NCBI RefSeq assembly: GCF_002813375.1
Contig: NZ_PHUJ01000003.1
Coordinates: 3,534,001 to 3,598,000 of the forward strand
DNA from: Pseudonocardia alni
GTDB taxonomy: Bacteria; Actinomycetota; Actinomycetes; Mycobacteriales; Pseudonocardiaceae
Reading direction: 5' to 3'
Length of the DNA: 64,000 nt
The notes under the pieces were generated by a model that had not been told where the DNA came from, did no database searches, and worked only from the letters and a program-made list of their open reading frames with translations. Positions 477 through 26,614 of this stretch are shown here, piece after piece (positions within the stretch are counted from its first letter, which is position 1; each line of letters opens with the position of its first letter). Made by a program: the position numbers and the translations under genes.

Positions 477-488
477 GGAGGAGGGGAC

Positions 489-2593: not shown

Positions 2594-2594
2594 G

Positions 2595-9259: not shown

Positions 9260-9274
9260 GGAGGTGACCCCCGG

Positions 9275-10702: not shown

Positions 10703-13158
10703 CCCGCCCGTCCCGCACGACCCTCGAAGGGCGTAGGGCCGCACTCGCGGCCCTGCGCCCTTCGGGGCGTTCCGCGCTGGGTCTGATCATGGTCCTCGCC
10801 CTGGTGGCGCTGACCGTGGCGGGCGTGTCCCGGGTGAAGGTCGAGACCGGGGTCGAGTCGTTCCTGCCGTCGTCGGACCCGTCGGTGCAGCGCTACACCG
10901 AGCTCGCCCGGTCCTTCGGCGGCGACCCGATCGTCGTGCTGCTGCGCGCCCCGCAGGCCCCCGGCCTGCTCGAGCGGGACGTGCTGCCCCGGGTCCTCGG
11001 GGTCGAGGGGCAGCTGTCCCAGCTGCCCGACGTCGCGTCGGTCTACGGCCCGGCGACGACGCTGAACCAGCTGGCGTCGCAGTCGCAGAAGCTGCTCGCC
11101 GAGCTCACCGGCCGCCGCGACGGCCTGCAGCGGGCCGCGGCGATCACCGCCGAGCAGCGCGGGGAGGACCCGGTCGCCGCCGGGAACGCGGCCGTCGCGG
11201 CCTTCGACGCCCGCTACGGCCCGCTGATCGTGCAGGGCCTGCCCGTCGGGCTGCCGACCCTGCGCAACCAGCGCTTCATCGACCACTCGATCATGGGGTC
11301 CGGGGGTGAGCCGCGCCCGCAGTGGCGCTACGTCGTCCCCGACCAGCGGTCGCTGGCGATCCTGGTCCGGCCCCGCGAGGGACTCGACCAGGCCGGTACC
11401 GAGCAGCTCGTCGCCGCGGTGAACGCGACCGTCACGCAGGCGCAGCTGCCCGCCGAGGCGACCGTCTCCGGCGTCCCCGCGATCACCGCCTCGCTCGGCA
11501 CCGCGGTGGACCGGGAGGCGCCGGTCCTCGGCGCGGTCGCGGTCGTCGCGATCGGGCTGTGCCTCTTCGTGGTGCCCTGGACCCGACGGCGACGGCGGCT
11601 GATCCCGCTCGCGGTCACCCTGGCCGCGACCGCGGCGACGCTGGCCGTGCTCGGCTGGGCCGGGCGACCGGTCTCGCTGGGCGTGGTCGCGTTCCTGCCG
11701 GTCCTGGTCGGGCTCGGCAGCTACTACCCGACCTACTTCGCCCGCGGGGCGCGGCCGCGCACGGTCGTCGTCGTCGCGGCGGGGACGGCGGCCGGTTTCG
11801 GTGCGCTGCTGCTGTCGCCGCTGCCGTTCGTGCGCGACCTCGGGTCGACCCTGGCCCTGGGTGTCGCGTTCGCGGTGGCGCTCGGCTGGTTCGTCTACCG
11901 CCCCGGTGGCTGGGCCGGACCGGACCGCCCGTCCGACGCACCCGCCGGCGGTGCACCCGACAGCGCCGCACCCGCCGGCGGTGCACCCGACAGCGCCGCA
12001 CCCGCGGGCGGTGCACCCGCCGTCGACGGGGCCGCCGACGGCACCGCCGCCGGCGGCGCCGGGGGCGAGGTCCCCGCCGGCGCCGACGAGCCGATCGCGC
12101 GGCCGGGCCGGTCCCGGCTGGTCGCGGTCGTGCTGGCGGGGCTGGTCGCGGTCGGGGGCTGGGCCACGCTGCCCTTCCTGCCCCTGCAGACCAGCGTGGA
12201 CGCGCTGTCGGCCGGGCTGCCCGCCGTCGACGACGCCACCCGGGTCGAGCAGGTCCTCGGGTCCGGCGGCGAGCTCGCCGTCGTGCTGCGCTCCACCGAC
12301 GGCACGGGCGACGTGCTCACCCCGCAGGCCTGGGAGTGGATGACGACCGCCCAGCAGGGGATCGTGCGGCTGCACGGCGACGAGGCACGCCCCGCGCTCT
12401 CGGCGCCGTCGCTGCTGTCGTTCCTCGGCCCCACCCCGGACCAGGAGCAGATCCGCGCCGGGGTCCGGCTGCTGCCCCCCTACCTCACCGGGGCCGTGCT
12501 GCGGCCCGACGGCCAGGTCGCGGTGCTGTCGTTCGGGGTCCGGCTCGACGACCTCGACCGGCTCCGGGACCTCACCGACGCGATCGCCGCCGAGCTGCCC
12601 CCGGCCCCGCCCGGCTTCCTCGCGGAGGTGTCCGGGCTGCCCGCCGTCGCGGTGCAGGGCTACGAGCTGGTCTCCGCCGACCGCTACCTGGCCGGTACCG
12701 CCGGCCTGGTCGCGGCGGCCCTGGTGCTCGCGGTCGGGCTGCGGCACCGCCGCGACGCGCTGCGCGCCGCGCTCGCCGCCGTGCTCGCGACCGGCGCGAA
12801 CCTGTTCCTGCTCTGGGCGTTCGGCATCCCGCTGAACCCGCTCACCGTCGCGCTCGGGTCGCTGACCGCCGCCGTCGGCTGCGAGTTCACCGTGATGACC
12901 TGCGACGCCGTCCGCACGCGCGACCCGCGCCTGCGGACCGCGGTGACCCTGGCGGCCCTCACCTCGGGCACCGGGTTCGCCGTGCTGGCGCTGTCCGACC
13001 TCGCCCTCATGCGCGAGTTCGGGCTGCTGCTGGCGCTGTCCGTACTGCTGTCCTACCTGGCCGCGCGCCTGGTGGTGCGGGCGTTCCCGCCCGCACCGGC
13101 CGGGGTCGGGATCTCCGGGAGTACCCCCGCCCCGGAGAAGCTCGTTGGAGTGATGTGA
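10699..13158 (+). CDS. MmpL-like RND family transporter
   Basis: Large inner-membrane transporter, 819 residues, of the RND/MMPL superfamily. An N-terminal helix (about 25-45) is followed by a first extracytoplasmic domain (ETGVESFLPSSDPSVQRY), a helix bundle near 270-400, a second extracytoplasmic domain and a second bundle near 660-810 (LGSLTAAVGCEFTVMTCDA, typical of MMPL). The linker after the first bundle is an Ala/Pro/Gly repeat encoded by a 30-bp tandem repeat. The gene sits directly behind six Mce genes and before a foldase gene. Joint work with the Mce importer is inferred from operon structure. Substrate unknown. Confidence 0.9.
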   Translation: MTRPSRTTLEGRRAALAALRPSGRSALGLIMVLALVALTVAGVSRVKVETGVESFLPSSDPSVQRYTELARSFGGDPIVVLLRAPQAPGLLERDVLPRVLGVEGQLSQLPDVASVYGPATTLNQLASQSQKLLAELTGRRDGLQRAAAITAEQRGEDPVAAGNAAVAAFDARYGPLIVQGLPVGLPTLRNQRFIDHSIMGSGGEPRPQWRYVVPDQRSLAILVRPREGLDQAGTEQLVAAVNATVTQAQLPAEATVSGVPAITASLGTAVDREAPVLGAVAVVAIGLCLFVVPWTRRRRRLIPLAVTLAATAATLAVLGWAGRPVSLGVVAFLPVLVGLGSYYPTYFARGARPRTVVVVAAGTAAGFGALLLSPLPFVRDLGSTLALGVAFAVALGWFVYRPGGWAGPDRPSDAPAGGAPDSAAPAGGAPDSAAPAGGAPAVDGAADGTAAGGAGGEVPAGADEPIARPGRSRLVAVVLAGLVAVGGWATLPFLPLQTSVDALSAGLPAVDDATRVEQVLGSGGELAVVLRSTDGTGDVLTPQAWEWMTTAQQGIVRLHGDEARPALSAPSLLSFLGPTPDQEQIRAGVRLLPPYLTGAVLRPDGQVAVLSFGVRLDDLDRLRDLTDAIAAELPPAPPGFLAEVSGLPAVAVQGYELVSADRYLAGTAGLVAAALVLAVGLRHRRDALRAALAAVLATGANLFLLWAFGIPLNPLTVALGSLTAAVGCEFTVMTCDAVRTRDPRLRTAVTLAALTSGTGFAVLALSDLALMREFGLLLALSVLLSYLAARLVVRAFPPAPAGVGISGSTPAPEKLVGVM
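11941..12019 (+). repeat. 30-bp in-frame tandem repeat, about 2.6 copies
   Basis: Two perfect 30-bp units (11941-11970 and 11971-12000) plus a partial third with one substitution (12001-12019) lie inside the MmpL-like gene. Each unit encodes ten residues (PAGGAPDSAA register). The repeat falls in the cytoplasmic linker between the two membrane halves. Copy number may vary between strains without breaking the frame. Confidence 0.9.
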
Positions 13159-14276
13159 TGCGACTGAAGTCCACACTGGCGTGGATCGCCGGCGCCGCCC
13201 TCGACCGTGTCCGGACCACCTGGACCGGCCGGATCGTGGCGGGCGTCCTCGTCCTCGCCCTCGTCGCCGGGATCGGCGGCGGGGTCTGGTGGAAGATGCA
13301 GCAGGTACCCGACGGCGCGGCGCTGGCCGTCGGCGACCGGGTCGTGACCGTCACCGACCTCGACGACCGGGTGCAGACCCTGCGGGCGCTCTACGGCGTC
13401 CAGCCCCCGGTCGAGGACCCGGTGCGGATGGACGGCTTCCGCCGCGACGCCGCCAAGGCCGTCGCGCTGAGCATGGTGCTGGAGGACCGGGCGGCCGAGA
13501 TGGGCGTCGGCATCGCCGACGCCAAGGTCCGCCAGACCCTCGACGAGTACATCACCCAGCAGCTCGGCAACGGCCCCGGCGCCCGTGACGACTTCGTCCA
13601 GGTCCTGGGCAACGTCGGCACCACCGAGGACAAGGTGATGACCGAGGTCCGCCAGCAGATGGTGGTCGGCGAGCTGTTCGACCGGGTCACCAAGGACGTC
13701 GCCGTCACCGACGACGACCTGCGCGCCGACTTCCCGAAGTACGCCGAGCGGCTCGGCACCCCCGAGAAGCGCGACCTGTCCAACATCGTGGTCGCCAGCA
13801 AGGAGGCCGCCGACAAGATCGCGGCCGACCTGCGGGGCGGTGCCGACTTCGCGACCGTCGCGCGGGCCAGCACCATCGACAACGCCACCCGGGCGAACGG
13901 CGGCGCGCTCGGCCCGATCAGCGCCGACCAGCTGCAGCCCGACTACGCGAAGGCCGCCTTCGAGACCCCGGCCGGCCAGGTCTTCGGGCCGGTGCAGAAC
14001 CAGTTCGGCTGGAACGTCGGCCGGTCCGGTGCGGTGACCCCGGGCGTCCCGGCGAACTTCGACCAGGTGCAGGACCGGCTCCGCGAGCTGGTGCTGTTCG
14101 ACCGGCGGATCACCGTCTGGGGCCAGTGGATGAACGACTCCCTGCGCGGGGGCGACGTCCGCTACGCCGACGACTACCGCCCCGCCGACCCGGACACCGC
14201 CCCCACCGGGGCGAGCCCCGGCCTGCCCTCCGGTACGCCGCAGACCGTCCCGCCCGCACCCGGTGGTGGCGGGTGA
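13158..14276 (+). CDS. Membrane-anchored parvulin-type peptidyl-prolyl isomerase (PrsA/SurA-like)
   Basis: Predicted extracytoplasmic foldase, 372 residues. The ATG overlaps the MmpL-like stop by three bases. An N-terminal helix (about 26-48) anchors it. A SurA-N-like helical region follows (residues 60-190), then a PpiC/parvulin domain at about 195-300 with the characteristic stretches RDLSNIVV, GADFATVARASTIDN and GGALGPI. The C-terminus is Pro/Gly-rich. Cotranscription with Mce proteins and the MmpL-like transporter suggests it folds the exported parts of this importer; that is inference. A general foldase role is the alternative. Confidence 0.85.
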   Translation: MRLKSTLAWIAGAALDRVRTTWTGRIVAGVLVLALVAGIGGGVWWKMQQVPDGAALAVGDRVVTVTDLDDRVQTLRALYGVQPPVEDPVRMDGFRRDAAKAVALSMVLEDRAAEMGVGIADAKVRQTLDEYITQQLGNGPGARDDFVQVLGNVGTTEDKVMTEVRQQMVVGELFDRVTKDVAVTDDDLRADFPKYAERLGTPEKRDLSNIVVASKEAADKIAADLRGGADFATVARASTIDNATRANGGALGPISADQLQPDYAKAAFETPAGQVFGPVQNQFGWNVGRSGAVTPGVPANFDQVQDRLRELVLFDRRITVWGQWMNDSLRGGDVRYADDYRPADPDTAPTGASPGLPSGTPQTVPPAPGGGG

Positions 14277-14561: not shown

Positions 14562-15050
14562 TCAGCGGACGGCGGGTGCCGGGACGGGGTCGCCGTTCGG
14601 GTTCAGCGGCAGCCAGGTCCCGCCGAAGGCCTCGACGCCCTGGCCGGTCACCGCACCCGGCGTCGTGTCGCCCGCGAAGCGGTGCAGGACGTGCCCGGCG
14701 TAGGTCACCTGCTCGCCGCCGGCCGTCGCGGTGGTGCCGATGACCTCGGTGCGCAACGGGTTCAGCGCCGGGCGGGCGGGGTGCGGCACCCCCTCGGCGA
14801 CGTAGGCAGGCCACTGCGCGAGGCACTCGCCGGCGCACTCCCCGGCCGGGACGCGCGCGTAGAGCACCCGGCCCTGCCCGTCGGCGAGCACCGCGCCGGC
14901 CGTCGAGGTGACCACGTCGATGGTCGTGCCGGCGCCGGGGAGCGTGAACGCCCGCTCGGTGCCCGCGGGCTCGGCGGACGTGCAGGCGCCCAGGGACAGG
15001 GCGGCCGCGGCGAGGAGCAGCGCGACGCGGTGGCGGGACGGGGCGGGCAC
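14562..15050 (-). CDS. Secreted-repeat lipoprotein (COG4315/PF03640-like)
   Basis: Predicted surface lipoprotein, 162 residues, from a GTG at 15050 preceded by GGAGGA. A signal peptide ends in the lipobox LGAC (Cys near residue 21). The mature part shows two copies of the secreted-repeat pattern: ADGQGRVLYARVPAGE with ECLAQWPAY, then AGHVLHRFAGDTTPGAV with GGTWLPLNPNG. These match the family of short lipoproteins of unknown function found in actinobacteria. Upstream in-frame codons do not look like protein of this family. It ends against the mce operon terminator. Confidence 0.85.
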   Translation of the reverse strand: MPAPSRHRVALLLAAAALSLGACTSAEPAGTERAFTLPGAGTTIDVVTSTAGAVLADGQGRVLYARVPAGECAGECLAQWPAYVAEGVPHPARPALNPLRTEVIGTTATAGGEQVTYAGHVLHRFAGDTTPGAVTGQGVEAFGGTWLPLNPNGDPVPAPAVR

Positions 15051-15085: not shown

Positions 15086-16024
15086 TCAGCGGGTGAGCAG
15101 CAGGAACAGGCAGTACGAGGTGACCATCGCCAGCACCACCAGCGCGGGCACCAGCAGCCGCGGGTCGAGCTCGATGGTGCGGGAGCCGCGGCGCGGCCCG
15201 TCCAGCTCGGCGCGGGTCGCGTCCGGGTCGGGCGGGCCAAGGAAGTCCGAGATCCGGAAGCGGCGGTCGAAGTCGTCGGAGTCGGCGACACCGCGCAGCA
15301 GCTCCGACGGCGGCCCGCACGCCACGATCCGGCCGTGGCACAGGATCGCGACGGTGTCGGCGAGCTCCCGGGCCAGCGCGATGTCGTGCGTGGTGACCAG
15401 CACCGTGGCCCCCGAGCGCGCGTGCTGCTCGCGGACCGCGGCCACCAGCGTGCCCGCGTGGGCGGAGTCCAGACCGGTCTCCAGCTCGTCGAGCACCAGC
15501 ACCGGCGCCTCGACGGCCAGCGTACGGGCGATCGCCAGCCGCTTGCGGCCGTGCGCGGGGAGCTCGGACGGGAGCGCGTCGGCCCGGTCGTGCAGCCGCA
15601 TCTCGCGCAGCCGGTGCATCGCGACCCGCTCGACGCGCTCGGGGGACATGCCGCGGCCGTCGAGGGCGTAGGTCAGGTTCTCGTAGACCGACAGCGAGCC
15701 GAACAGCGACGACTCGAACACCGACGGCCCGCCGAACAGCACGCTCATGCCGCGTCGCAGCCGTCGCAGCTGCGCCTCGCCCGCCGCGTGCACGTCGACG
15801 CCGTCGACGGTCACGGTGCCCCGCCCCGGGGCGACGAGCCCGGCGAGGTGGCGGACCAGCGTCGTCTTGCCCGACCCGGACGGGCCCATGACGACCGTCA
15901 CGGTGCCGGGCGCCAGGTGCAGGCCCAGGCGGAACAGCACCGGGGTGTCGTCGATCATCGTGGTGACGTCGGTGAAGTCGATCGTGGGCCCGCGGGGCGG
16001 CTCGTCCGGCACGGGTCCCGTCAT
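15086..16024 (-). CDS. MlaF-like ABC ATPase with degenerate motifs and a C-terminal membrane helix
   Basis: A 312-residue ATPase-like protein related to MlaF. Walker A GPSGSGKT near residue 50, Walker B VLVLDELETGLD near 180 and the H-loop TTHD are kept. The Q-loop glutamine position reads GG (MSVLFGGPSVFES), and the LSGGQ signature is replaced by LPAHGRKR. A basic linker leads to a C-terminal hydrophobic helix (about residues 290-310), which MlaF proteins lack. A similar protein is encoded at 25691-26614. It may be a regulatory or membrane-tethered partner of the importer rather than a normal motor. ATG 16024 is used; GTG 16027 is possible. Confidence 0.8.
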   Translation of the reverse strand: MTGPVPDEPPRGPTIDFTDVTTMIDDTPVLFRLGLHLAPGTVTVVMGPSGSGKTTLVRHLAGLVAPGRGTVTVDGVDVHAAGEAQLRRLRRGMSVLFGGPSVFESSLFGSLSVYENLTYALDGRGMSPERVERVAMHRLREMRLHDRADALPSELPAHGRKRLAIARTLAVEAPVLVLDELETGLDSAHAGTLVAAVREQHARSGATVLVTTHDIALARELADTVAILCHGRIVACGPPSELLRGVADSDDFDRRFRISDFLGPPDPDATRAELDGPRRGSRTIELDPRLLVPALVVLAMVTSYCLFLLLTR

Positions 16025-16137
16025 CACACCAGTGGACGACGACGGCCCGGAGGGCTCGTCCCCCGGCGGGGGTGACTCCCTCTCCCGGAGTGGGTGTCCC
16101 TGCGCGCGCGGGGCCCCGCCGGGCGTCGCGCGCGTTC

Positions 16138-16143
16138 TAGCCT
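16138..16143 (+). promoter_or_regulatory. Probable -10 box of a leaderless promoter
   Basis: TAGCCT ends six bases before the ATG at 16150, the spacing expected for a leaderless actinobacterial transcript. The same TAGCCT box stands seven bases before the TetR gene start on the other strand at 25602. Confidence 0.5.
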
Positions 16144-16149
16144 GCGCCC

Positions 16150-16569
16150 ATGAGCGAGCAGGTGCAGAGCCGGACCACGATGCCGTGGGCGCTGGTCGTG
16201 TCGGCCGCCGCGTGGATGCTGACCGCGGTGCTGCTAGCCGTCGCGTGGACGGGGCTGCGGCCGGAGTCCACGGTCGACGAGGACACCGCGAGCACGCTGG
16301 CCGGACAGGGCGCGCCGGTCGTCGAGACCGGCTCGGGCGCGCCGTACCCCCCGTGGCTGCTGCTCGTGCTCGCCGTGCTGCTCGTCGTGGCGGGGGCCGC
16401 CCTGGCGCTGCGCCGCCGCGCGGGCCGTTACCCCGCGGTCGTCCTGTCCGTTGTGTCGGTGGTGCTCCTCGCCGCGGCGGGGCGCTGGGAGACGATCCCG
16501 GCGATGGTGCTGCTGGTGGTGGGGACCGTCCCGCTGCTGATGCCCTCGGCGCTGCGACACCTGCGCTGA
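16150..16569 (+). CDS. Hypothetical membrane protein, about four helices
   Basis: A 139-residue protein with hydrophobic segments near residues 13-32, 67-85, 94-108 and 113-128 and short basic loops. No family is recognised. It appears to be transcribed from a leaderless promoter and lies between the ABC ATPase gene (divergent) and another small membrane protein, ahead of the acyl-CoA synthetase. It may belong to the uptake side of the catabolic locus; this is context only. Confidence 0.65.
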   Translation: MSEQVQSRTTMPWALVVSAAAWMLTAVLLAVAWTGLRPESTVDEDTASTLAGQGAPVVETGSGAPYPPWLLLVLAVLLVVAGAALALRRRAGRYPAVVLSVVSVVLLAAAGRWETIPAMVLLVVGTVPLLMPSALRHLR

Positions 16570-16629
16570 CGCACTCGTGGGGGACCCGGTGCCGGTTCCC
16601 CGCACGAGCCGACCGAAAGGAGGCCCGGA

Positions 16630-17019
16630 GTGGCCGTGCCGGGGTTCGACTGGTTCTCCGACCGTGTGGACTGGATCAGCCTGGTCCGCGGGGCCTCACT
16701 GGCCTTCAGCGTGCTGGTGATCGGCGGTCTCGCCGCGCCGCTGGGCTCACAGATCCCGGTGGTGGGCCCGGCCTGGCTGATCATCACCGCGGTCGTCGCG
16801 TTCGTGCTGGCCGGCTACCGGATCGGCGACGCGCTCGACCCGCGCGTGCACGGGGCCGGTGCGGCCGTCGCGGGCTACGCGCTGGTGCTGCCGCTGGTGG
16901 TGCTCGGCACCGGCACGCTCGACCCGCTGCAGCTGGTCCTCACCGCGGCGACCGCGGTGGTCATGGGCGCGATCGCCGGGCACCTCGCGGGCCGCAACCG
17001 GGACCGCCGCACCGCCTGA
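16630..17019 (+). CDS. Hypothetical membrane protein, about four helices
   Basis: A 129-residue protein from a GTG with a strong AAAGGAGG site six bases upstream. Four hydrophobic segments are visible (about 20-36, 46-64, 75-92 and 97-117), with Gly/Ala-rich packing and a basic C-terminus. No named family is recognised. It precedes the acyl-CoA synthetase by 140 bases, in a leader that shares a motif with the SCP2-like gene leader. Confidence 0.65.
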   Translation: MAVPGFDWFSDRVDWISLVRGASLAFSVLVIGGLAAPLGSQIPVVGPAWLIITAVVAFVLAGYRIGDALDPRVHGAGAAVAGYALVLPLVVLGTGTLDPLQLVLTAATAVVMGAIAGHLAGRNRDRRTA

Positions 17020-17159
17020 GAGCGGCCGCGCCCGAGTGGGGGAGGAACCACCCCCTCGGGAGGGATGCCGGGTCACGCAGCGTGCCGACACGATGCGGGC
17101 TGCGACGGCGGGGCCTCGCCCGCGCCGTTCCGACCCACCCTCGAAGGGGAGAGCAGCCC

Positions 17160-18704
17160 GTGTTCCCAGGCATCCATGCGCGCACCCGGCCCGACCACCC
17201 CGCGGTGGTGCAGCCCGAGACCGGCCGCACCACGACCTACGCCGAGCTCGACGACCGCTCCCGCCGGATCGCGCACGTGCTGCGCGACGCCGGCCTGCGT
17301 CGCGGCGACCACGTCGCCTTCGTGTCCGACAACGCCCCGGAGGTCTTCGAGATCTACTGGGCCGCATTGCGCTCCGGCCTCTACGTCACCGGGATCAACC
17401 ACCACCTGTCCCCGGACGAGGCCGCCTACATCGTCACCGACTGCGGCGCGCGGGTCCTGTTCGCGTCGGCGGCGAAGCGCGAGCTCGCCGAGGCCCTGGT
17501 GGAGCGGACCCCCGGCGTCGAGCGCCGCTTCGCCTTCGGGGGTGCGGTCGAGGGCTACGAGTCCCTCGGCTCGGCGATGGAGCTCGCCGCGGACGGGCCG
17601 CTGCCCGAGCAGCCCCGCGGCGCGGACATGCTCTACTCCTCGGGCACCACCGGCCGGCCCAAGGGCATCAAGCCCGCGCTGCCGACGATCCAGGTGGACG
17701 AGCCCGGTGACCTCTACACCGCGGTGTTCGGGCCGATGTACGGCTTCGGCGAGGAGACCGTCTACTACTCGCCGGCCCCGGTCTACCACGCCGCGCCGCT
17801 GCGCTTCGGCGGCATCGTGCACGCCCTCGGCGGCACCGTGGTCATGGCGCAGAAGTTCGGGGCCGAGGAGGCCCTCGGGCACCTGGAGCGCTACCGGGTC
17901 ACGCACGGCCAGTTCGTCCCGACGATGTTCGTCCGGATGCTCAAGCTCCCTGACGAGACACGCAGCCGTCACGACGTCTCCTCGCTGCGCGTGGCGGTGC
18001 ACGCCGCCGCGCCGTGCCCGGTCGACGTCAAGCAGAAGATGATCGACTGGTGGGGCCCGGTCCTGCACGAGTACTACTCCTCGACCGAGGGCAACGGCGT
18101 CACCTTCATCGACTCGGCGGCGTGGGCGGCCAAGCCCGGCTCGGTCGGCAAGGCAGGCCTCGGCGTCATCCGGATCTGCGACGACGAGGGCACCGAGCTC
18201 CCCACCGGCGAGGTCGGCACCGTCTACTTCGAACGCGACGTCCCGCCGTTCGAGTACCACAACGACCCCGAGCGGACCCGCGAGGCGCGGCACCCTGACC
18301 ACGAGAACTGGTCCACCACCGGCGACGTCGGCTACCTCGACGAGGACGGCTACCTGTTCCTCACCGACCGCAAGGCCTTCATGATCATCTCCGGCGGGGT
18401 CAACATCTACCCGCAGGAGGTCGAGGACGTCCTCACCCTGCACCCCAAGGTCTACGACGTCGCCGTCATCGGCGTGCCCGACGCCGAGATGGGCGAGCAG
18501 GTCAAGGCCGTCGTGCAGACCCCCGAGGGCGTCGAGGGCTCCCCGGAGCTCGAGGCCGAGCTGCTGGAGTTCGTCCGCGAGCGGATCGCGCGCTACAAGG
18601 CCCCGCGCAGCGTGGACTTCACCGCGGAGCTGCCCCGCAGCGCCACCGGCAAGCTCGTCAAGGGCGATCTGCGCAAGCAGTACACCGAGGTCGCCCCCGC
18701 CTGA
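17160..18704 (+). CDS. Acyl-CoA synthetase (AMP-forming, ANL superfamily)
   Basis: Activates a carboxylic acid to its CoA thioester through an acyl-adenylate; 514 residues from GTG 17160 with AAGGGGAG upstream. Motifs are in order: P-loop YSSGTTGRPKGIK near 158-170, the A5 region YYSSTEGNG near 305, GDVGYLDEDGYLFLTDRK near 385-402 and the C-terminal hinge and lysine region ATGKLVKGDLRK near 497. Length and motifs fit fatty or steroid side-chain CoA ligases. With the P450, alcohol and aldehyde dehydrogenases downstream, it would finish conversion of a hydrophobic alcohol or alkane to an acyl-CoA. Substrate not determined. Confidence 0.92.
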   Translation: MFPGIHARTRPDHPAVVQPETGRTTTYAELDDRSRRIAHVLRDAGLRRGDHVAFVSDNAPEVFEIYWAALRSGLYVTGINHHLSPDEAAYIVTDCGARVLFASAAKRELAEALVERTPGVERRFAFGGAVEGYESLGSAMELAADGPLPEQPRGADMLYSSGTTGRPKGIKPALPTIQVDEPGDLYTAVFGPMYGFGEETVYYSPAPVYHAAPLRFGGIVHALGGTVVMAQKFGAEEALGHLERYRVTHGQFVPTMFVRMLKLPDETRSRHDVSSLRVAVHAAAPCPVDVKQKMIDWWGPVLHEYYSSTEGNGVTFIDSAAWAAKPGSVGKAGLGVIRICDDEGTELPTGEVGTVYFERDVPPFEYHNDPERTREARHPDHENWSTTGDVGYLDEDGYLFLTDRKAFMIISGGVNIYPQEVEDVLTLHPKVYDVAVIGVPDAEMGEQVKAVVQTPEGVEGSPELEAELLEFVRERIARYKAPRSVDFTAELPRSATGKLVKGDLRKQYTEVAPA

Positions 18705-18780
18705 CGGACGCGCCGCGACGGTCACCGCGCGGAACCGTCCGTCACGCACCGTGCATCCGTAGGGAGCACGGAACCACCCC

Positions 18781-18811
18781 CCGGGAGCGATGTGACCCCC
18801 CTCGCTCCCGG
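18781..18811. terminator. Hairpin between acyl-CoA synthetase and SCP2-like gene
   Basis: CCGGGAGCGA (18781-18790) and its exact complement (18802-18811) form a 10-bp stem with an 11-base loop. It could terminate the synthetase transcript or be part of a regulatory leader, since its left side overlaps a motif also found upstream of the synthetase gene. Confidence 0.45.
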
Positions 18812-18880
18812 ACAGCATTCGTACCACCGACGGCGCCCGCTTCCGGGCGTCGGCACCCAGCACTCAACGAGGAGATCGAG

Positions 18881-19288
18881 ATGGGCTTCTTCGCCGACAG
18901 CAACGAGGTCGACAAGTACATCGGCGGCGTCTTCCGCGCGGCCAACGACCACCCGGAGTCGGGCCCGAAGATGCGTGCCGCCGGCATCAACCTGCGCGTG
19001 CTCTACACCGACCCGGACACCGAGATGTGGGTCAAGATGAACGAGCCCGCCATGGAGGTCCACACCGGCGCCGACGAGGACAAGGCCGACATCACGCTGA
19101 TGATGCGTGCCGACACCGGCGACAAGTTCTGGCGCGGTGAGTACAACCTCGCCGTCGGTCTCGCCAAGGGCGAGGTCAAGGCCAAGGGCCCGGTCAACAA
19201 GATCCTGAAGCTGGTCCCGCTGACCAAGCCGCTGTTCCCGATGTACCGCGAGCTGGTCGCCGAGAAGGACGCGACCGCGAGCGCCTGA
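18881..19288 (+). CDS. SCP2-like sterol carrier domain protein
   Basis: A 135-residue single-domain protein with GAGGAG before the ATG. The sequence follows the SCP2 fold pattern: polar N-terminus, DPDTEMWVKM, then a turn leading to ADITLMMRADTGDKFWRGE and a glycine- and lysine-rich stretch GLAKGEVKAKGPVNKILK. SCP2 domains bind lipids or acyl-CoAs in a hydrophobic pocket. Its place between the acyl-CoA synthetase and dehydrogenase genes suggests it shuttles or presents the hydrophobic intermediate. It has no catalytic domain. Confidence 0.85.
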   Translation: MGFFADSNEVDKYIGGVFRAANDHPESGPKMRAAGINLRVLYTDPDTEMWVKMNEPAMEVHTGADEDKADITLMMRADTGDKFWRGEYNLAVGLAKGEVKAKGPVNKILKLVPLTKPLFPMYRELVAEKDATASA

Positions 19289-19327
19289 TCCGCCTCACCC
19301 GAGCGAAGAGGAAGGGACGCCGACGAG

Positions 19328-20379
19328 ATGGCGACCATGAAGGCGGTCGTGCTCCGCGAGCCGCACAAGATCGAGGTCATGGAGGTCCCCAAGCCGGAGA
19401 TCACCGACCCCGGTGACGTGCTGATGCGCGTCGACCTCACCGCGATCTGCGGGACCGACCTGCACCCCTACGAGGGCCGGATCGTGATCGAGGACGACGT
19501 CGTCCTCGGCCACGAGTTCCTCGGCACCATCGAGGCGGTCGGGTCCGGGGTCACCCTGATCTCCGAGGGCGACCGTGCCGTCGCGTCGTGCGTCGTGAGC
19601 TGCGGCAGCTGCTACAACTGCCGCCGCAACCGGCCCGGCCAGTGCTTCGGCACGATGATCTTCGGTCTCGGGGTGACCTTCGGCAACCTGTCCGGCGGCC
19701 AGGCCGAGTACGTGATCGTGCCGAACGCGGACCGCACGCTGCGCAAGCTCAGCGACGAGGGCAAGGGCAACGACGAGGACAAGCTCTTCGTCGGCGACAT
19801 CATGGCCACCGGCTACGAGGCCGTGCGCAAGTTCATCCAGCCCGGCGACACCGTCGCCGTGGTCGGGGCCGGCCCGGTCGGGCTGTGCGCCGCGATGGCC
19901 GCGGACGTGCTCGGCGCGTCGCAGACGATCGTGGTGGACAAGGTCCCGGCCCGGCTCAAGGAGGCGGAGGCGATCGGGGCGGTCCCGGTCAACGCCGACG
20001 AGACCGACCCGGCCGAGGCCGTGCAGGACCTCACCGACTGGCGCGGGGCGGACGTCGTGATCGACGCCGTCGGCCACCCGTCGGCGCTGCTCTCCGCCTG
20101 CTCGCTCGTGCGCTCCGGTGGTGCGATCTCGATCCCCGGCGTCTACACCGAGGACTCCATCGAGCTGCCGTTCGGCGACCTCTACCTCAAGGGCGTCACC
20201 ATCTCCCAGGGCGTCGCCAACATCACCAACTACATGGACGAGACGCTCGCGCTGATCGCCGCGGGCAAGCTCGACCCGAGCCGGTTCATCTCGCACCGGA
20301 TGCCGATGTCGCAGGCGACGGAGGCGTACCGGATGTTCGAGGAGCGCGAGGCCACCAAGATCGTCCTGGACCCCACCGC

Positions 20380-20383
<4 letters not shown>
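19328..20383 (+). CDS. Zinc-dependent alcohol dehydrogenase (MDR family)
   Basis: Oxidises an alcohol to an aldehyde or ketone with NAD(P); 351 residues. Catalytic zinc ligands lie in ICGTDLHPYEG (Cys near 39) and GHEF (near 61). The structural zinc loop CGSCYNCRRNRPGQC is complete near 94-108. The Rossmann motif GAGPVGLCA is near 180. It overlaps the aldehyde dehydrogenase by four bases (ATGA), so the two steps are coupled. In this cluster it likely oxidises the alcohol made by the P450. Substrate not shown by the sequence. Confidence 0.93.
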
Positions 20384-21903
<1,520 letters not shown>

Positions 21904-21917
21904 GGCCGTCGACCCCG

Positions 21918-21953
21918 GGGTCCTCCCGGCGCCCGCCCGCGCCGGGAGGACCC
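21918..21953. terminator. Hairpin terminator after the aldehyde dehydrogenase
   Basis: GGGTCCTCCCGGCGC (21918-21932) and its exact complement (21939-21953) form a 15-bp stem with a six-base loop, 14 bases after the stop codon. Confidence 0.8.
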
Positions 21954-22093
21954 CCCTCCCTCTCCCGTTGGGGGTACGACGTCGCCCTCGCGGGGAGACG
22001 CCCCGCTCCCACCCGTCTCCGCACACTGTTCCCGACCGTGTGTCACCAGCTTTCCGCCCGCGGAGCACCCCGCCGGGCTCGGAGGAGATCCCG

Positions 22094-23437
22094 ATGACCG
22101 CCACCTTCGACGCCACCGACTTCGAGTCGGAGATGTTCGACCCGGACGCCGTGGACATGATCCCGGCCACCAGCGAGGGCAAGCCCGAGCACTACCCGGT
22201 CGACATCTCCACCAAGGCGTTCTGGAACCAGACCTCCGAGCAGCGTGAGGAGACCTTCAAGGTCCTCCGCGCCGAGCAGCCGGTCTCCTGGCAGCGCCCC
22301 GTCGACGACGCGGTCACCCCCGACCCGGACGACCCCGGCTACTGGGCCGTGGTCAGCCACGCCGACATCGTGAAGGTCTCCCGGGACAACGACACCTACG
22401 TCTCCGGCCAGGGCGTGCTGTTCGACCTGCTCCCGCCGATCTTCCTCGAGCTGACCCAGTCCTTCCTGGCGATGGACAACCCGAAGCACGACCGGCTGCG
22501 CAAGCTGGTCGCCTCGGCGTTCACGCCGAAGCAGATCAAGCTGATCGACGACAAGATCGCGCTCGCCGCGAAGGAGGTCGTCGACGGCGTCGTCGCCGAG
22601 ACCTCCGGCGAGATCGACTTCGTCACCAGCGTCGCGAAGGTCCTGCCCACCCGGATCTTCTGCGACATCATGGGCATCCCTGAGCACCTGCGCGAGGCCA
22701 CCGAGAAGAACGCGGCGGACATCGTCGCCTGGGCCGACGACGAGGTGCTCGCCGGTCGCCAGGCCGACGAGGTGCAGGTGCAGGCCGCGACCAACCTGCA
22801 CGACATCGCCACCGAGCTGATCGAGCTCAAGACCGCCGAGCCCTCCGACGACCTGATCACCTCGCTGATCAACGCCGAGGTCGACGGGCAGAAGCTCGAC
22901 GAGTTCGAGATCGGCTCGTTCTTCGTGCTCATGGCCGTCGCCGGCACCGACACCACCCGGCACACCTCGTCGTTCACCGTCCGCGCCTTCACCCACTTCC
23001 CCGAGCAGAAGCAGTGGCTCATGGAGGACTACGACGGACGCATCAACAACGCCATCGACGAGTTCGTCCGGTACGCCTGCCCGGTGATGACCTTCCGTCG
23101 CACTGCGGTCGTCGAGACCGAGCTGGGCGGCAAGAAGATCGTCCCCGGCGACAAGGTCGTCATGTTCTACCCGTCGGGCTGCATGGACGAGAAGGTCTTC
23201 GACAACCCGGAGCAGTTCGACCTGTCGCGGGAGAACGCGAAGGCGCACACCGGGTTCGGTGGCGGCGGTGTCCACTTCTGCCTCGGCAACCAGCTCGCCA
23301 AGTCCATGCTGAAGGCGCTGTTCCGCGAGCTGCTGTTCCGCATCCCGCAGTTCGAGGTCGGTGAGCCCGAGCTGCTGGGCACCAACTTCATGCGCGGGGT
23401 GAAGCGCATGCCGTTCCGATTCTCCCTGGAGAAGTGA
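22094..23437 (+). CDS. Cytochrome P450 monooxygenase
   Basis: Haem monooxygenase, 447 residues, with GGAGGAGAT ahead of the ATG. The I-helix motif AGTDTTRHTSS is near residue 283, the ExxR pair is EFVR at about 323-326 and the haem-binding loop is FGGGGVHFCLG with the thiolate Cys near 396. It is soluble, as usual for actinobacteria. A 3Fe-4S ferredoxin overlaps its stop and a ferredoxin reductase follows, giving a complete electron chain. With Mce import and alcohol/aldehyde oxidation nearby, hydroxylation of a terpenoid, alkane or steroid side chain is plausible; the sequence alone does not decide. Confidence 0.95.
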   Translation: MTATFDATDFESEMFDPDAVDMIPATSEGKPEHYPVDISTKAFWNQTSEQREETFKVLRAEQPVSWQRPVDDAVTPDPDDPGYWAVVSHADIVKVSRDNDTYVSGQGVLFDLLPPIFLELTQSFLAMDNPKHDRLRKLVASAFTPKQIKLIDDKIALAAKEVVDGVVAETSGEIDFVTSVAKVLPTRIFCDIMGIPEHLREATEKNAADIVAWADDEVLAGRQADEVQVQAATNLHDIATELIELKTAEPSDDLITSLINAEVDGQKLDEFEIGSFFVLMAVAGTDTTRHTSSFTVRAFTHFPEQKQWLMEDYDGRINNAIDEFVRYACPVMTFRRTAVVETELGGKKIVPGDKVVMFYPSGCMDEKVFDNPEQFDLSRENAKAHTGFGGGGVHFCLGNQLAKSMLKALFRELLFRIPQFEVGEPELLGTNFMRGVKRMPFRFSLEK

Positions 23438-23637
23438 TGGGTCTTCGTATCGAGCTGGACGAGAGCAAGTGCAGCGGCCTCGGCCTCTGCGAGGCCGAGG
23501 CGCCGGAGCTGTTCGAGGTACGTGACGACGGGTCGCTCGACATCCTCGACGCCACCCCGTCCGACGAGCACCGCGCGGCCTGCGAGGCGGCGATCGCCTC
23601 CTGCCCGACCGAGGCCCTGCGCCTCGTCGAGAGCTGA
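23437..23637 (+). CDS. [3Fe-4S] ferredoxin partner of the P450
   Basis: A 66-residue electron carrier starting at the ATG that overlaps the P450 stop by one base (GTG 23434 is an alternative). Cys12 and Cys18 are spaced C-x5-C and Cys56 is followed by Pro, the pattern of single 3Fe-4S ferredoxins that serve actinobacterial P450s. A fourth Cys (49) is not in a ligand position. The acidic surface (EAEAPELFE) fits docking to redox partners. Confidence 0.93.
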   Translation: MGLRIELDESKCSGLGLCEAEAPELFEVRDDGSLDILDATPSDEHRAACEAAIASCPTEALRLVES

Positions 23638-23713
23638 CCGACCCCGTCACACCACACCGCAGACGCCGGGGGCCGCCACCCCCGGCGTCCGCTCGATCCC
23701 GAGGAGGACCACC

Positions 23714-24931
23714 GTGGAGCACCTCGTCGTCGTCGGGGCGTCGCTCGCCGGGATCCGTGCCGTCGAGTCCGCCCGCCGGGCCGGCCACACCGGCCGGATC
23801 ACGCTGGTCGGTGCCGAGCGCCACCTGCCCTACGACCGGCCCCCGCTGTCCAAGGCGTTCCTGGACGACACCGGTTCCGAGCCGGCCGACCCGCGTTACC
23901 GGACCGAGGAGCACCTGCGTGAGGAACTGGGGGTGGAGCTCCGCCTGGGCAGCCCGGCGACCTCACTGGACACGACCGCGGAGCTGATCGGGATCGGCGA
24001 CGGCTCCGAGCTGTCCTACGACGCGCTCGTCGTCGCGACCGGGGGAGCGGCCCGGATGCTGCCCGGCACCGGGGAGCTGTCCGGCGTGCACGCCCTGCGG
24101 ACCTGGGACGACGCGCTCGCCGTGCGCTCCGCGCTGGATGCGGGCGCCCGCACCGTCGTGATCGGTGCCGGGTTCATCGGCTCGGAGGTGGCGAGCTCGG
24201 CGCGCAAGCGCGGCCTGTCCGCCACGATCGTCGAGACGCTGCCGGTCCCGCTGGTCCGCTCGGTCGGCGCGGACATGGGCACGGCCTGCGCCGACCTGCA
24301 CCGCGAGCACGGTACCGACCTGCGCTGCGGCGAGACGGTCGACGGGCTGGAGTCCTCCGCCGACGGCGCCGTCACCGGCGTCAGGCTGGGCTCGGGCGAG
24401 GTGGTCCCGGCGGACCTCGTGGTCGTCGGCATCGGCGTGTCGCCCTGCACGGACTGGCTGGAGGGATCCGGCGTCGAGCTGCACGAGCGGGACCGGGGCG
24501 TCGTCGCCGACGCCACCCTGCGCGCCGCCGACGGCGTGTACGCCGCGGGCGACGTCGTGCACTTCCCGAACCACGTGTTCGACGGCGAGGTCATGCGCCT
24601 GGAGCACTGGACGACGGCCGCGGAGCAGGGTGCGCTGGCCGCGAAGAACGCGCTCGACCCGGAGAACGCCACCGAGCTCGGGACCGTGCCGTACTTCTGG
24701 TCGGACTGGTACTCCAGCCGGATCCAGTTCGTCGGCCGCCCGGCCGCCGACGAGATCCGGGTCGTGTCCTCCGAGCTGGGCGACGACCGGTTCCTCGCGC
24801 TCTACCGGCGCGGGGACCGGCTGGTCGGGACGATCACGATCGACCGGCCCACCCAGATCATGAAGTACAAGCGGCTGATCTCGAAGCGCGCGAGCTGGGC
24901 CGAGGCGCTGGAGTTCGCCGGGGTCTCCTAG
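23714..24931 (+). CDS. FAD-dependent ferredoxin reductase
   Basis: Transfers electrons from NAD(P)H to the ferredoxin; 405 residues from a GTG with GAGGAGGACC upstream. The FAD Rossmann motif is degenerate at the N-terminus (VVVGASLAGIRAVESARRAG), followed by RPPLSKAFL. The NAD(P) Rossmann motif is VVIGAGFIGSEVASSARKRG near 153. The FAD ribityl motif VYAAGDVVHF is near 275. The C-terminal reductase domain follows. Its stop TAG shares the palindrome CTAG with the stop of the TetR gene on the other strand. It completes the P450 electron chain. Confidence 0.93.
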   Translation: MEHLVVVGASLAGIRAVESARRAGHTGRITLVGAERHLPYDRPPLSKAFLDDTGSEPADPRYRTEEHLREELGVELRLGSPATSLDTTAELIGIGDGSELSYDALVVATGGAARMLPGTGELSGVHALRTWDDALAVRSALDAGARTVVIGAGFIGSEVASSARKRGLSATIVETLPVPLVRSVGADMGTACADLHREHGTDLRCGETVDGLESSADGAVTGVRLGSGEVVPADLVVVGIGVSPCTDWLEGSGVELHERDRGVVADATLRAADGVYAAGDVVHFPNHVFDGEVMRLEHWTTAAEQGALAAKNALDPENATELGTVPYFWSDWYSSRIQFVGRPAADEIRVVSSELGDDRFLALYRRGDRLVGTITIDRPTQIMKYKRLISKRASWAEALEFAGVS

Positions 24932-25602
24932 CCGTCGGTGCCGGTCGTCCGGTCGGCGTCGTCGATGTCGAGCATCCGGCGGGCCAGTCGCTTCCAGCTC
25001 GGGAGGTGCGGCTCGGTCACCGGGTCGCGGGGGTGGATCGCGTAGGTCATCGCGACCCCCCGCATGCTGGTGAACAGCAGGTCACGGCACTCGTCGAAGT
25101 CGGGGTGGCTGGACAGCACCGGCCCGAACATCGTCGCGACCACGTGGGTCACCGCGACGCCCAGACGTCGCTCGGCGGGGAACAGCTCGTTTCGGATGTC
25201 GGTACTGGTGCGGGCGGCGACCCACAGCTCCATCGACGCCCAGAAGTACGGCTGGGCGAAGGTGCCCCACAGCAGCTCGACGGCCCGGTCGCACCGTTCG
25301 GGCCCGGTGGTGCGGCCGTACTCCGAGCCCAGGACCCACTGCTCCATGTCGGCGATCTGCTCGACGACCAGGTGCTGCGCGGCGGCGATGAGCAGGGACT
25401 CGCGGCTGGGGAAGTGGTGCAGCAGCCGGCCGCGCGACACCCCGGCGCGCCGCTGCACGGTCACGGTCGTGGAGTGCGCGTAGCCGTTCTCGAACAGCTC
25501 CTCGAGGGCCGCGGCGAGGATGATCGCCCGGCTGCTGGCCCGGCGTTCGCCCTGGGTGCGGCGGGGCCGGGGCGGGCGTGGTTCGTCCACGGGGGAGACC
25601 AT
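24928..25602 (-). CDS. TetR-family transcriptional regulator
   Basis: Probable repressor of the catabolic locus, 224 residues. The N-terminal helix-turn-helix reads ILAAALEELFENGYAHSTTV to GVSRGRLLHHFPSRESLL, a standard TetR pattern, and a ligand domain follows. I prefer the ATG at 25602 because a TAGCCT box stands seven bases before it, as in a leaderless promoter; an upstream ATG at 25656 would leave only about 34 bases before the divergent gene. Palindromes AGGCTAGCCT (25610-25619) and ACCCTAGGGT (25660-25669) lie in the divergent region and are candidate operators. Ligand unknown. Confidence 0.88.
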   Translation of the reverse strand: MVSPVDEPRPPRPRRTQGERRASSRAIILAAALEELFENGYAHSTTVTVQRRAGVSRGRLLHHFPSRESLLIAAAQHLVVEQIADMEQWVLGSEYGRTTGPERCDRAVELLWGTFAQPYFWASMELWVAARTSTDIRNELFPAERRLGVAVTHVVATMFGPVLSSHPDFDECRDLLFTSMRGVAMTYAIHPRDPVTEPHLPSWKRLARRMLDIDDADRTTGTDG

Positions 25603-25671
25603 GCGGGGCAGGCTAGCCTCCGGCCGCACAGCGGATGTCTGTACACGCTGCTCCACCCGACCCTAGGGTTC

Positions 25672-25689
25672 GTCACCCGAGGGGGTGAC
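25672..25689. promoter_or_regulatory. 18-bp dyad at the start of the second anchored ATPase gene
   Basis: GTCACCC (25672-25678) and GGGTGAC (25683-25689) form a perfect dyad around four bases, immediately before the ATG at 25691. Together with ACCCTAGGGT at 25660-25669 it makes a compact regulatory region between the TetR and ATPase genes. Binding by the TetR protein is a guess. Confidence 0.45.
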
Positions 25690-25690
25690 G

Positions 25691-26614
25691 ATGATCGACG
25701 ACGTACTGGTCCCGACGGCACCGGCGGTCTCGTTCCGCGCGGTCCGGATGTCCTTCGACTCCGAGCCCGTGCTCGAGGGGATCGACCTCGAGCTGCCACC
25801 CGGCCGCACGACCGTCCTGCTCGGTCCGTCCGGCGTCGGCAAGACGACGTTGGTGCGGATCCTGCTCGGGCTCTACGCGCCCGAGTCGGGCGAGACCCTG
25901 GTGGACGGTCACGCGGTCGCCGGTCTGCGTGACGCCGAGCTGGCCGGGCTGCGCCGCCGGATGGGGGTCCTGCTCGGCGGGTCCTCGGTCTACGACGCGT
26001 CGCTGTTCGCGTCGCTGACGCTGTTCGACAACGTCGCCTACCCGCTGCGGGCGGCCGGGGCGCCCGACGCCGACGCCGCGACCTGGCGGATCCTGCACGA
26101 GTTCGACCTGGCCGACCACGCCACCGCGCTGCCGTCGGCGGTGTCGGCGGGGCAGCGCCGGCGGGCCGCGCTCGCGAGGGCCCTGGTCGGCGCGCCGCAG
26201 CTGCTGGTGCTCGACGACCCCGGGCCGGCCATGGACCTGCACAACCGCGAGCAGGTCGTGCGCGCCGTGCGCCGGCGTGCCGCGGACGCGACGGCACTCG
26301 TCGTCACCCACGACCTGGACCTGGCACGGGACCTGGGTGACCGGGTCGCGCTCCTGCTCGGCGGCCGGATCGTCGCCGACGGCCCGGTCGACGAGGTGCT
26401 CGGCGGGATCACCACCGCCGCCGACCTGGACGCCCGGTTCGGCGTGCGGGCGTCGCTGCCGGTGGCCTCCGCGGCCGAGCAGGCGGCGCTCGCGCGGCGG
26501 GCCCGGCGGCAGGGGCTCGGCGAGGCGCGGCTGCTCATGGGGGTGCTGCTCGTGATGCTCGCGTTGCTGTCGCTGGCCCTCGGCTCGGGCATGGTGGCGA
26601 ACCCGGCGATCTGA
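25691..26614 (+). CDS. MlaF-like ABC ATPase with degenerate motifs and a C-terminal membrane helix (second copy)
   Basis: A 307-residue relative of the protein at 15086-16024. Walker A GPSGVGKT is near residue 48 and the H-loop VVTHD is kept. The Q-loop position reads GG (MGVLLGGSSVYDA), the signature is VSAGQRRRAALARAL, and Walker B ends LVLDDPGPAMD, with Asp in place of the catalytic Glu. A hydrophobic C-terminal helix is at about 282-300. The ATG at 25691 follows GAGGGGG; GTG 25685 is an alternative. It is divergent from TetR at the far end of the catabolic locus. Reduced or absent ATP hydrolysis is inferred. Confidence 0.8.
   Translation: MIDDVLVPTAPAVSFRAVRMSFDSEPVLEGIDLELPPGRTTVLLGPSGVGKTTLVRILLGLYAPESGETLVDGHAVAGLRDAELAGLRRRMGVLLGGSSVYDASLFASLTLFDNVAYPLRAAGAPDADAATWRILHEFDLADHATALPSAVSAGQRRRAALARALVGAPQLLVLDDPGPAMDLHNREQVVRAVRRRAADATALVVTHDLDLARDLGDRVALLLGGRIVADGPVDEVLGGITTAADLDARFGVRASLPVASAAEQAALARRARRQGLGEARLLMGVLLVMLALLSLALGSGMVANPAI

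What the first reader, a model, noticed from the sequence alone, without database searches (positions are those of the whole stretch)
15086..26614. Two membrane-anchored MlaF-like ATPases lacking the Q-loop glutamine bracket a catabolic locus
Proteins at 15086-16024 and 25691-26614 share Walker A and H-loop but have GG in place of the Q-loop Gln, degenerate signature motifs and a C-terminal membrane helix. The second also has Asp for the catalytic Glu. The normal ATPase of the Mce operon (1691) has all motifs. They look like a distinct subfamily that may regulate the Mce importer or replace its ATPase for one substrate.
Basis: partly seen in the sequence, partly recalled or inferred. Interest (0 to 1): 0.78.

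Follow-up and report, generated by a model that had tools for sequence, protein, structure and literature searches.

The report
Membrane-tethered Mce ATPase look-alikes missing motifs
These two genes belong to a small, conserved branch of the ATPases that power Mce lipid importers: its members keep the ATP-binding parts, have lost several parts needed to split ATP, carry a membrane anchor, and usually sit beside an importer that has its own normal ATPase, so they may be regulators rather than motors.

Summary
The proteins at 15086-16024 (minus strand; "AbcA") and 25691-26614 (plus; "AbcB") are Mkl/MceG-type nucleotide-binding domains with Gly-Gly in place of the Q-loop Gln, altered signatures and a C-terminal hydrophobic helix. 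They are not decayed copies: all 23 full-length relatives aligned share the GG (varied synonymous codons), intact Walker A, Walker B Asp and H-loop His, and the helix. The branch (100/100) was found in only two genera of one family among the genomes sampled. A type A gene lies near yrbE at 15 of 20 loci, and at all 15 a Gln-containing Mkl/MceG ATPase is encoded too. In one genus 13 of 14 genomes with the gene have a strong YrbE match, against 7 of 48 without. Two genomes have two Mce loci, each with its own AbcA and MceG. Replacement of MceG is therefore unlikely. Best idea: an ATP-binding, membrane-tethered pseudo-ATPase that docks on YrbE or MceG and tunes the importer; an asymmetric-subunit role is the main rival. 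No function was tested. The pair is unusual: type B occurs at only 4 of 20 loci.

The parts
15086..16024 (-). AbcA: Q-less, membrane-anchored Mkl/MceG-type ATPase-like protein, clade A
25691..26614 (+). AbcB: Q-less, membrane-anchored Mkl/MceG-type ATPase-like protein, clade B (Asp for the catalytic Glu; A-loop Phe kept, milder signature change)
489..1370 (+). YrbE permease (MlaE, PF02405); the end of a second YrbE-like frame at 3-476
   Evidence: (172.8 bits) for 489-1370; 3-476 by position and by similarity among loci
1730..2593 (+). canonical MceG/Mkl ATPase of the Mce operon, all motifs present (start approximate)
2595..10702 (+). six Mce-type substrate-binding proteins
   Evidence: for five of them (MlaD or Mce4_CUP1); the one at about 7964-9259 by position and similarity among loci
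10699..13158 (+). MMPL/RND-type membrane protein
13158..14276 (+). SurA/PpiC-type foldase
14562..15038 (-). Lipoprotein_15 protein just downstream of AbcA on the same strand (start approximate)
16150..17019 (+). two small hydrophobic proteins without a Pfam family (16150-16569, 16630-17019)
17160..23637 (+). catabolic genes: acyl-CoA synthetase, SCP2-like protein, zinc alcohol dehydrogenase, aldehyde dehydrogenase, CYP268-like P450, ferredoxin
   Evidence: the aldehyde dehydrogenase was named by reading the sequence, not by a family search
23714..24931 (+). ferredoxin reductase
   Evidence: named by reading the sequence; similar genes at several loci
24928..25656 (-). TetR-type regulator, divergent from AbcB with about 34 bases between the starts

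Best explanation
AbcA (and, where present, AbcB) is a membrane-tethered pseudo-ATPase paralogue of MceG that serves as an accessory regulator of a Mce lipid importer. Shown by sequence: kinship with Mkl/MceG, conserved loss of the Q-loop Gln and of the signature core with ATP-binding motifs kept, a C-terminal hydrophobic helix, linkage to Mce operons that keep their own MceG, and gene orientation mostly opposite to the operon. Inferred: it binds ATP but hydrolyses it poorly or not at all, and it docks through its nucleotide-binding-domain surface either on YrbE (competing with MceG, as Mce1N does in mycobacteria) or on MceG itself (through the retained MceG-like C-terminal segment), so that the amount of AbcA or the ATP level sets importer activity to match the neighbouring lipid-oxidation genes.
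For: GG in 23 of 23 members, with four different codons at the first Gly and two at the second, so the amino acids look held by selection. Walker A, Walker B Asp and H-loop His invariant in the same 23. Hydrophobic C-terminal stretch in 23 of 23 (best 19-residue mean hydropathy 2.4-3.4) against 0.2-0.6 in 18 MceG rows, one of them (G129) cut short and two identical. yrbE in the fetched stretch at 15 of 20 loci, with a Gln-containing Mkl/MceG-type ATPase at all 15. Opposite strand to the Mce genes at 14 of 15. Co-occurrence with a strong YrbE match: 13 of 14 against 7 of 48 genomes, and 3 of 3 against 0 of 15 in the second genus. Separate AbcA and MceG at each of two Mce loci in G100 and in G155. 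AbcA distances follow MceG and YrbEB distances over 14 loci (r 0.82). Best Foldseek matches are MlaF, with M. smegmatis MceG close behind. Precedent: the membrane protein Mce1N binds YrbE1B and displaces MceG (PMC10517005, sections 9 and 10 read).
Against: No interaction or activity was tested. Five of 20 loci show no yrbE: G101, G112 and G153 have none in about 75 kb each, and two G147 contigs are short (4.4 and 19 kb). Seven of 20 yrbE-bearing genomes of the genus lack the gene, so Mce does not need it. The distance correlation may partly reflect shared ancestry of the genomes; no unlinked control gene was run, and MceE gave only r 0.40. 10 of 19 clade A rows, AbcA included, keep the catalytic Glu, so weak hydrolysis is not excluded. 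VIA-align does not single out MlaF among ABC domains.
Confidence: 0.42

Rival explanations
1. AbcA is a stoichiometric, asymmetric subunit: it pairs with MceG (or with AbcB where present) as a heterodimer on the YrbEA/YrbEB permease, giving unequal ATP sites, as in heterodimeric ABC proteins with a degenerate site.
For: The permease is itself a pair of YrbE proteins. Clade A keeps a C-terminal segment that aligns with MceG's C-tail, and in MlaF such an extension holds the dimer together (PMC7367683, passages). Clades A and B differ in what they lost: A-loop aromatic in 19 of 19 A and 0 of 4 B; catalytic Glu in 9 of 19 A and 4 of 4 B; signature core further changed in A.
Against: AbcA is on the opposite strand to the Mce genes at 14 of 15 loci, so it is not simply co-transcribed with its supposed partner. 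By inference an AbcA-MceG pair would have a defect in both composite sites. Clade B is absent from 16 of 20 loci.
Confidence: 0.25
2. AbcA belongs functionally with the P450/lipid-oxidation genes (for example as an ATP-dependent sensor or scaffold at the membrane), and its closeness to Mce is indirect because both serve the same substrate.
For: At G101, G112 and G153 AbcA is near ferredoxin-reductase, FadD, TetR or P450 genes without yrbE in the fetched stretches. A divergent relative with GA instead of GG in G112 (L094) sits among acyl-CoA dehydrogenase-like and FadD-like genes with no Mce gene seen in 20 kb.
Against: Those three genomes do hold yrbE elsewhere. The catabolic genes vary more between loci than the Mce operon does.
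Confidence: 0.18
3. AbcA/AbcB is an alternative motor that replaces MceG for one substrate (part of the first reader's suggestion).
For: Kinship with Mkl/MceG and linkage to yrbE/mce; Walker A, Walker B Asp and H-loop His kept.
Against: Every linked locus also has a Gln-containing Mkl/MceG-type ATPase. Q-loop Gln lost and signature core SGG broken in 23 of 23, catalytic Glu replaced by Asp in 13 of 23.
Confidence: 0.06
4. The two genes are decayed, functionless duplicates of MceG.
For: Motif losses; faster divergence than MceG (mean distance 0.78 against 0.29); the G129 copy looks frame-disrupted.
Against: Uniform GG with synonymous codon turnover, invariant ATP-binding motifs, Q-loop and signature blocks more conserved than the protein as a whole (entropy 0.96 and 0.97 against 1.38), conserved position across two genera.
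Confidence: 0.03

Closest known systems
MceG / Mkl (Rv0655 family), the ATPase of actinobacterial Mce importers
   Same: Same branch of nucleotide-binding domains; linked to yrbE and mce genes; fold match to M. smegmatis MceG, 8fed; a related C-terminal segment after the domain in clade A.
   Different: About 30% identical; no Q-loop Gln, longer Q-loop, broken signature core, added C-terminal hydrophobic helix; present in addition to MceG.
MlaF of the E. coli MlaFEDB phospholipid transporter
   Same: Best Foldseek match of both models (6xgy); has a C-terminal extension after the ABC domain.
   Different: MlaF's extension ends in a short helix that grips the neighbouring MlaF (PMC7367683, passages), not in a membrane helix. 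That MlaF is a soluble sole motor is recalled.
Mce1N (MSMEG_0959 / Rv0513), negative regulator of Mce1
   Same: A membrane protein with a cytoplasmic domain that acts on the YrbE-MceG contact; a model for how AbcA may work.
   Different: Mce1N has two membrane helices followed by a small C-terminal cytoplasmic domain, not an ABC domain (PMC10517005, section 9).
Heterodimeric ABC proteins with a degenerate nucleotide-binding site
   Same: Loss of catalytic motifs with ATP-binding motifs kept.
   Different: From search listings only (PMC7756269 and PMC7544095) and recall: the usual hallmark is loss of the catalytic Glu; here the Q-loop Gln is lost throughout and a normal ATPase is encoded as well.
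Gln-retaining relatives in two genomes of another family (L106, L107)
   Same: Same 5-residue-longer Q-loop, Asp at the catalytic position.
   Different: Q-loop Gln kept (VVLQGTLPF), no C-terminal hydrophobic helix in the sequences read, no mce gene found in 20 kb.

Membership tests
MceG/Mkl Mce ATPase | Falls within the branch of nucleotide-binding domains that holds Mkl/MceG | tested here: met
   One branch (100/99) joins Mkl/MceG, the Gln-retaining relatives, two other rows (L014, L047) and clades A and B against 20 other ABC domains. MlaF itself was not in the tree.
MceG/Mkl Mce ATPase | Walker A and Walker B present | tested here: met
   Walker A residues and Walker B Asp invariant in 23 of 23
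MceG/Mkl Mce ATPase | ABC signature LSGGQ with at most one mismatch (criterion in PMC1810536, passage): AbcA | tested here: not met
   LPAHG, 4 mismatches
MceG/Mkl Mce ATPase | The same signature criterion: AbcB | tested here: inconclusive
   VSAGQ has 2 mismatches, but so has the window's canonical MceG (VSGGM), so the literal count does not separate them. The core SGG is kept in 20 of 20 Mkl/MceG rows and in 0 of 23 members.
MceG/Mkl Mce ATPase | Q-loop Gln | tested here: not met
   Gly in 23 of 23; Gln in 20 of 20 Mkl/MceG rows compared
MceG/Mkl Mce ATPase | Genomic association with yrbE/mce | tested here: met
   15 of 20 loci; co-occurrence 13 of 14 against 7 of 48 genomes
MceG/Mkl Mce ATPase | No membrane helix | tested here: not met
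   C-terminal helix 289-312 in AbcA and 261-301 in AbcB (lower confidence), hydrophobic stretch in 23 of 23
MceG/Mkl Mce ATPase | ATPase activity that drives Mce uptake | not testable with these tools
   needs purified protein and uptake assays
Mce1N-type regulator | Two membrane helices followed by a small cytoplasmic domain | tested here: not met
   One C-terminal helix on a full ABC domain
Mce1N-type regulator | Binds YrbEB and displaces MceG | not testable with these tools
Heterodimeric degenerate-site ABC subunit | Pairs with a catalytically competent partner domain | not testable with these tools
   no complex prediction; AbcB absent from 16 of 20 loci
NCBIfam curated families | Reaches the curated cut-off of a specific ABC family | tested here: not met
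   Best hits AbcA 126.6 bits against cut-off 330 and AbcB 133.5 against 264.85; the best 25 of 174 and of 184 families were shown, none at its cut-off. Both pass the general PF00005.

The most novel reading that the evidence does not exclude
A lineage-specific class of ATP-binding but non-hydrolysing, membrane-anchored copies of the Mce motor that compete with or pair with MceG on YrbE. The importer would be throttled by a pseudo-ATPase made from its own motor, with a second paralogue (AbcB, beside a divergent TetR gene in the window) as a substrate-responsive counterpart at some loci.
Probability: 0.3. Interest if true: 0.75.

Novelty: new variant of a known kind. Interest (0 to 1): 0.52.

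Why it matters
Mce importers bring lipids into actinobacteria, and how they are switched on and off is poorly known; one published regulator acts by keeping the motor off the permease. A conserved branch of motor look-alikes that kept ATP-binding motifs, lost the Q-loop Gln throughout, gained an anchor and stays beside the real motor would be a second, independent way to do it. It gives a concrete set of proteins to test.

Tried and rejected
Decay was tested by conservation of motifs and codons and rejected. An alignment error at the Q-loop was considered: L106 and L107, with the same longer loop, have Gln at the column where the members have the first Gly, so the Gly really replaces the Gln. 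Wider spread was sought in samples of 100 family, 397 order, 394 class and 396 phylum genomes; beyond genera g1 and g42 the only hits were the two Gln-retaining ones. The last three scored only 5 candidates per genome, all four used strict cut-offs, and one search used AbcB alone, so weaker relatives could be missed. No match in plasmids at E 1e-30; 18 pattern matches but no confirmed relative in viral contigs. The one scan of genome contigs gave 56 loci with ABC ATPases; of 48 stretches tried, 45 were usable and none of those showed an LLGG-type loop where the loop could be placed, so they served only as outgroups and as rows for folding. Of the 24 strong members the G129 copy (partial, apparently frame-disrupted, GG present) was left out of A2; L094 (FGAN in place of VLLGG; G112) was kept in the first tree and the combined alignment but not in the counts of 23. 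In the own genus 16 of 62 genomes passed the cut-off, but in G102 and G107 only canonical Gln-containing ATPases did, hence 14. The VIA-align comparison ranked CbiO first (Z 30.4), MlaF fourth (28.9), and did not list MceG among its 50 rows. The literature searches listed no paper whose title or abstract start describes such proteins; only 6 to 20 of the matching papers were listed per search. The P450's resemblance to CYP268A2 rests; two papers opened for that enzyme's substrates held only citations of it.
Full report
What is there. A Mce importer operon runs along 3-13158 on the plus strand: two YrbE permeases, a canonical Mkl/MceG ATPase (about 1730-2593), six Mce proteins and an MMPL-type protein, followed by a SurA/PpiC-type foldase. 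On the minus strand lie a Lipoprotein_15 gene and AbcA (15086-16024). Then come two small hydrophobic proteins, an acyl-CoA synthetase, an SCP2-like protein, an alcohol dehydrogenase, an aldehyde dehydrogenase, a P450 closest to CYP268A2 among solved structures (446.9 bits), a ferredoxin, a ferredoxin reductase, a TetR gene on the other strand, and AbcB (25691-26614). The aldehyde dehydrogenase and ferredoxin reductase were named by eye.

The observation. AbcA is the best match of AbcB in its own genome (44%, 179 bits; next best 33%, 119 bits; the reverse search was not run). Each is about 30% identical to the window's MceG. Predicted structures (mean pLDDT 89.8 and 88.8) show an ABC domain followed by a C-terminal helix, confident in AbcA and less so in AbcB.

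A real subfamily. A profile of five sequences found strong relatives in 14 of 62 genomes of the own genus and 3 of 18 of a second genus of the same family. Of 24 strong members 23 are full length and were aligned: 19 of clade A and 4 of clade B. GG is invariant in these 23, with four different codons at the first Gly and two at the second. Walker A, the Walker B Asp and the H-loop His are invariant. The catalytic position is Glu in 10 (all clade A) and Asp in 13 (9 clade A, 4 clade B). The A-loop residue is Ile, Leu or Arg in 19 of 19 clade A rows and Phe in 4 of 4 clade B rows. The signature core SGG, kept in 20 of 20 Mkl/MceG rows, is broken in 23 of 23. The last 60 residues hold a strongly hydrophobic stretch in 23 of 23, and in none of 18 MceG rows, one of which was cut short.

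Descent. In a tree with 22 assorted ABC domains, two of these rows (L014, L047), the Gln-retaining relatives, Mkl/MceG and clades A and B form one branch (100/99) against the other 20, and A plus B form a clade (100/100). A first tree with more members agrees (95/88, with L094 inside). The best Foldseek matches of both models are MlaF structures, with M. smegmatis MceG close behind; VIA-align does not separate MlaF from other ABC domains. Two genomes of another family in the phylum sample (G433, G537) have relatives with the same 5-residue-longer Q-loop but with the Gln still there and Asp at the catalytic position. If these are near the stem, the loop lengthened before the Gln was lost; the trees leave their exact place open. 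Samples of order, class and phylum found nothing else above the cut-offs.

Surroundings. I fetched stretches of 4 to 40 kb around 19 further clade A genes, about 75 kb for three of them, and compared all 20 loci, the window included, with the window's proteins. A yrbE gene is in the fetched stretch at 15 of 20. The other five are G101, G112 and G153 (those genomes hold yrbE elsewhere) and two G147 genes on short contigs. All 15 linked loci also contain an Mkl/MceG-type ATPase with its Gln; at G129 it is of the stand-alone Mkl type and about 23 kb from yrbE. AbcA is on the opposite strand to the Mce genes at 14 of 15; G100a is the exception. Genomes G100 and G155 each have two Mce loci with their own MceG and AbcA. 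Clade B occurs at 4 of 20 loci (window, G042, G161, G165); at the last three it lies about 2 kb from AbcA. Across the own genus 13 of 14 genomes with the gene have a YrbE match at 1e-60, against 7 of 48 without (Fisher p 1.1e-7, not corrected for kinship); G129, the exception, has a divergent yrbE about 14 kb from AbcA. In the second genus it is 3 of 3 against 0 of 15. Over 14 loci pairwise distances of AbcA follow those of MceG (r 0.82), YrbEB (0.82) and MceA-C (0.81-0.85), and those of MceE less (0.40); each p 0.0002 by 5000 permutations; MceD and MceF were not run. Shared ancestry of the genomes can produce part of this.

How it may work. A canonical ATPase stays at every linked locus, so AbcA does not stand in for a lost motor. 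With Gly for the Q-loop Gln and a broken signature core throughout, efficient ATP hydrolysis is unlikely (inference from general ABC biochemistry), while ATP binding looks preserved. In mycobacteria Mce1N, a membrane protein, binds YrbE1B and keeps MceG off, and its over-expression lowers fatty acid uptake (PMC10517005, sections 9 and 10); [quoted passage not shown] MceG and MlaF dimers use C-terminal extensions that reach to the partner (PMC9882608, a preprint, and PMC7367683; passages); clade A keeps a segment that aligns with MceG's C-tail before its hydrophobic helix. I therefore think AbcA most likely docks on YrbE or MceG as a tethered, poorly active look-alike and tunes the importer (0.42). 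An asymmetric-subunit role is the main rival (0.25), then a role tied to the P450 genes (0.18). Every interaction and activity step is inference.

Membership and novelty. By descent these proteins belong with Mkl/MceG. By the Q-loop, and for AbcA by the published signature criterion (at most one mismatch; PMC1810536, passage), they do not qualify as a working MceG; for AbcB the literal count does not decide, since the window's own MceG has as many mismatches. They reach no cut-off among the NCBIfam families shown. Seven literature searches listed nothing that describes them, within the limits of an open-access library and capped lists. I rate them a new variant of a known kind, interest 0.52.

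Noticed in passing
window 10699-14276: An MMPL/RND-type gene and a SurA/PpiC-type foldase follow the six mce genes; the foldase follows the mce genes at 11 of the 15 linked loci, and at three of the others the fetched stretch ends before the place. A foldase as a standing partner of Mce operons may deserve a look.
   Followed up: partly
window 16150-17019: Two small hydrophobic proteins without a Pfam family; a relative of the second is in 17 of 62 genomes of the genus, also close to yrbE in genomes without AbcA such as G102, G104, G107 and G144.
   Followed up: partly
window 14562-15038: A Lipoprotein_15 gene just downstream of AbcA; related genes lie next to AbcA at G042, G050, G127, G137, G161 and G165.
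   Followed up: partly
L148 (G112:C2:610000-629999), about 9021-9944: A more divergent relative (same gene as L094) with FGAN at the Q-loop and no obvious C-terminal hydrophobic helix, among acyl-CoA dehydrogenase-like and FadD-like genes, no Mce gene seen.
   Followed up: partly
L149, L150 (G433, G537): Relatives with the longer Q-loop, Gln kept and Asp at the catalytic position, with no mce gene found in 20 kb.
   Followed up: partly
window 24928-25691: The TetR gene and AbcB are divergent with about 34 bases between the starts, suggesting shared control of AbcB.
   Followed up: no
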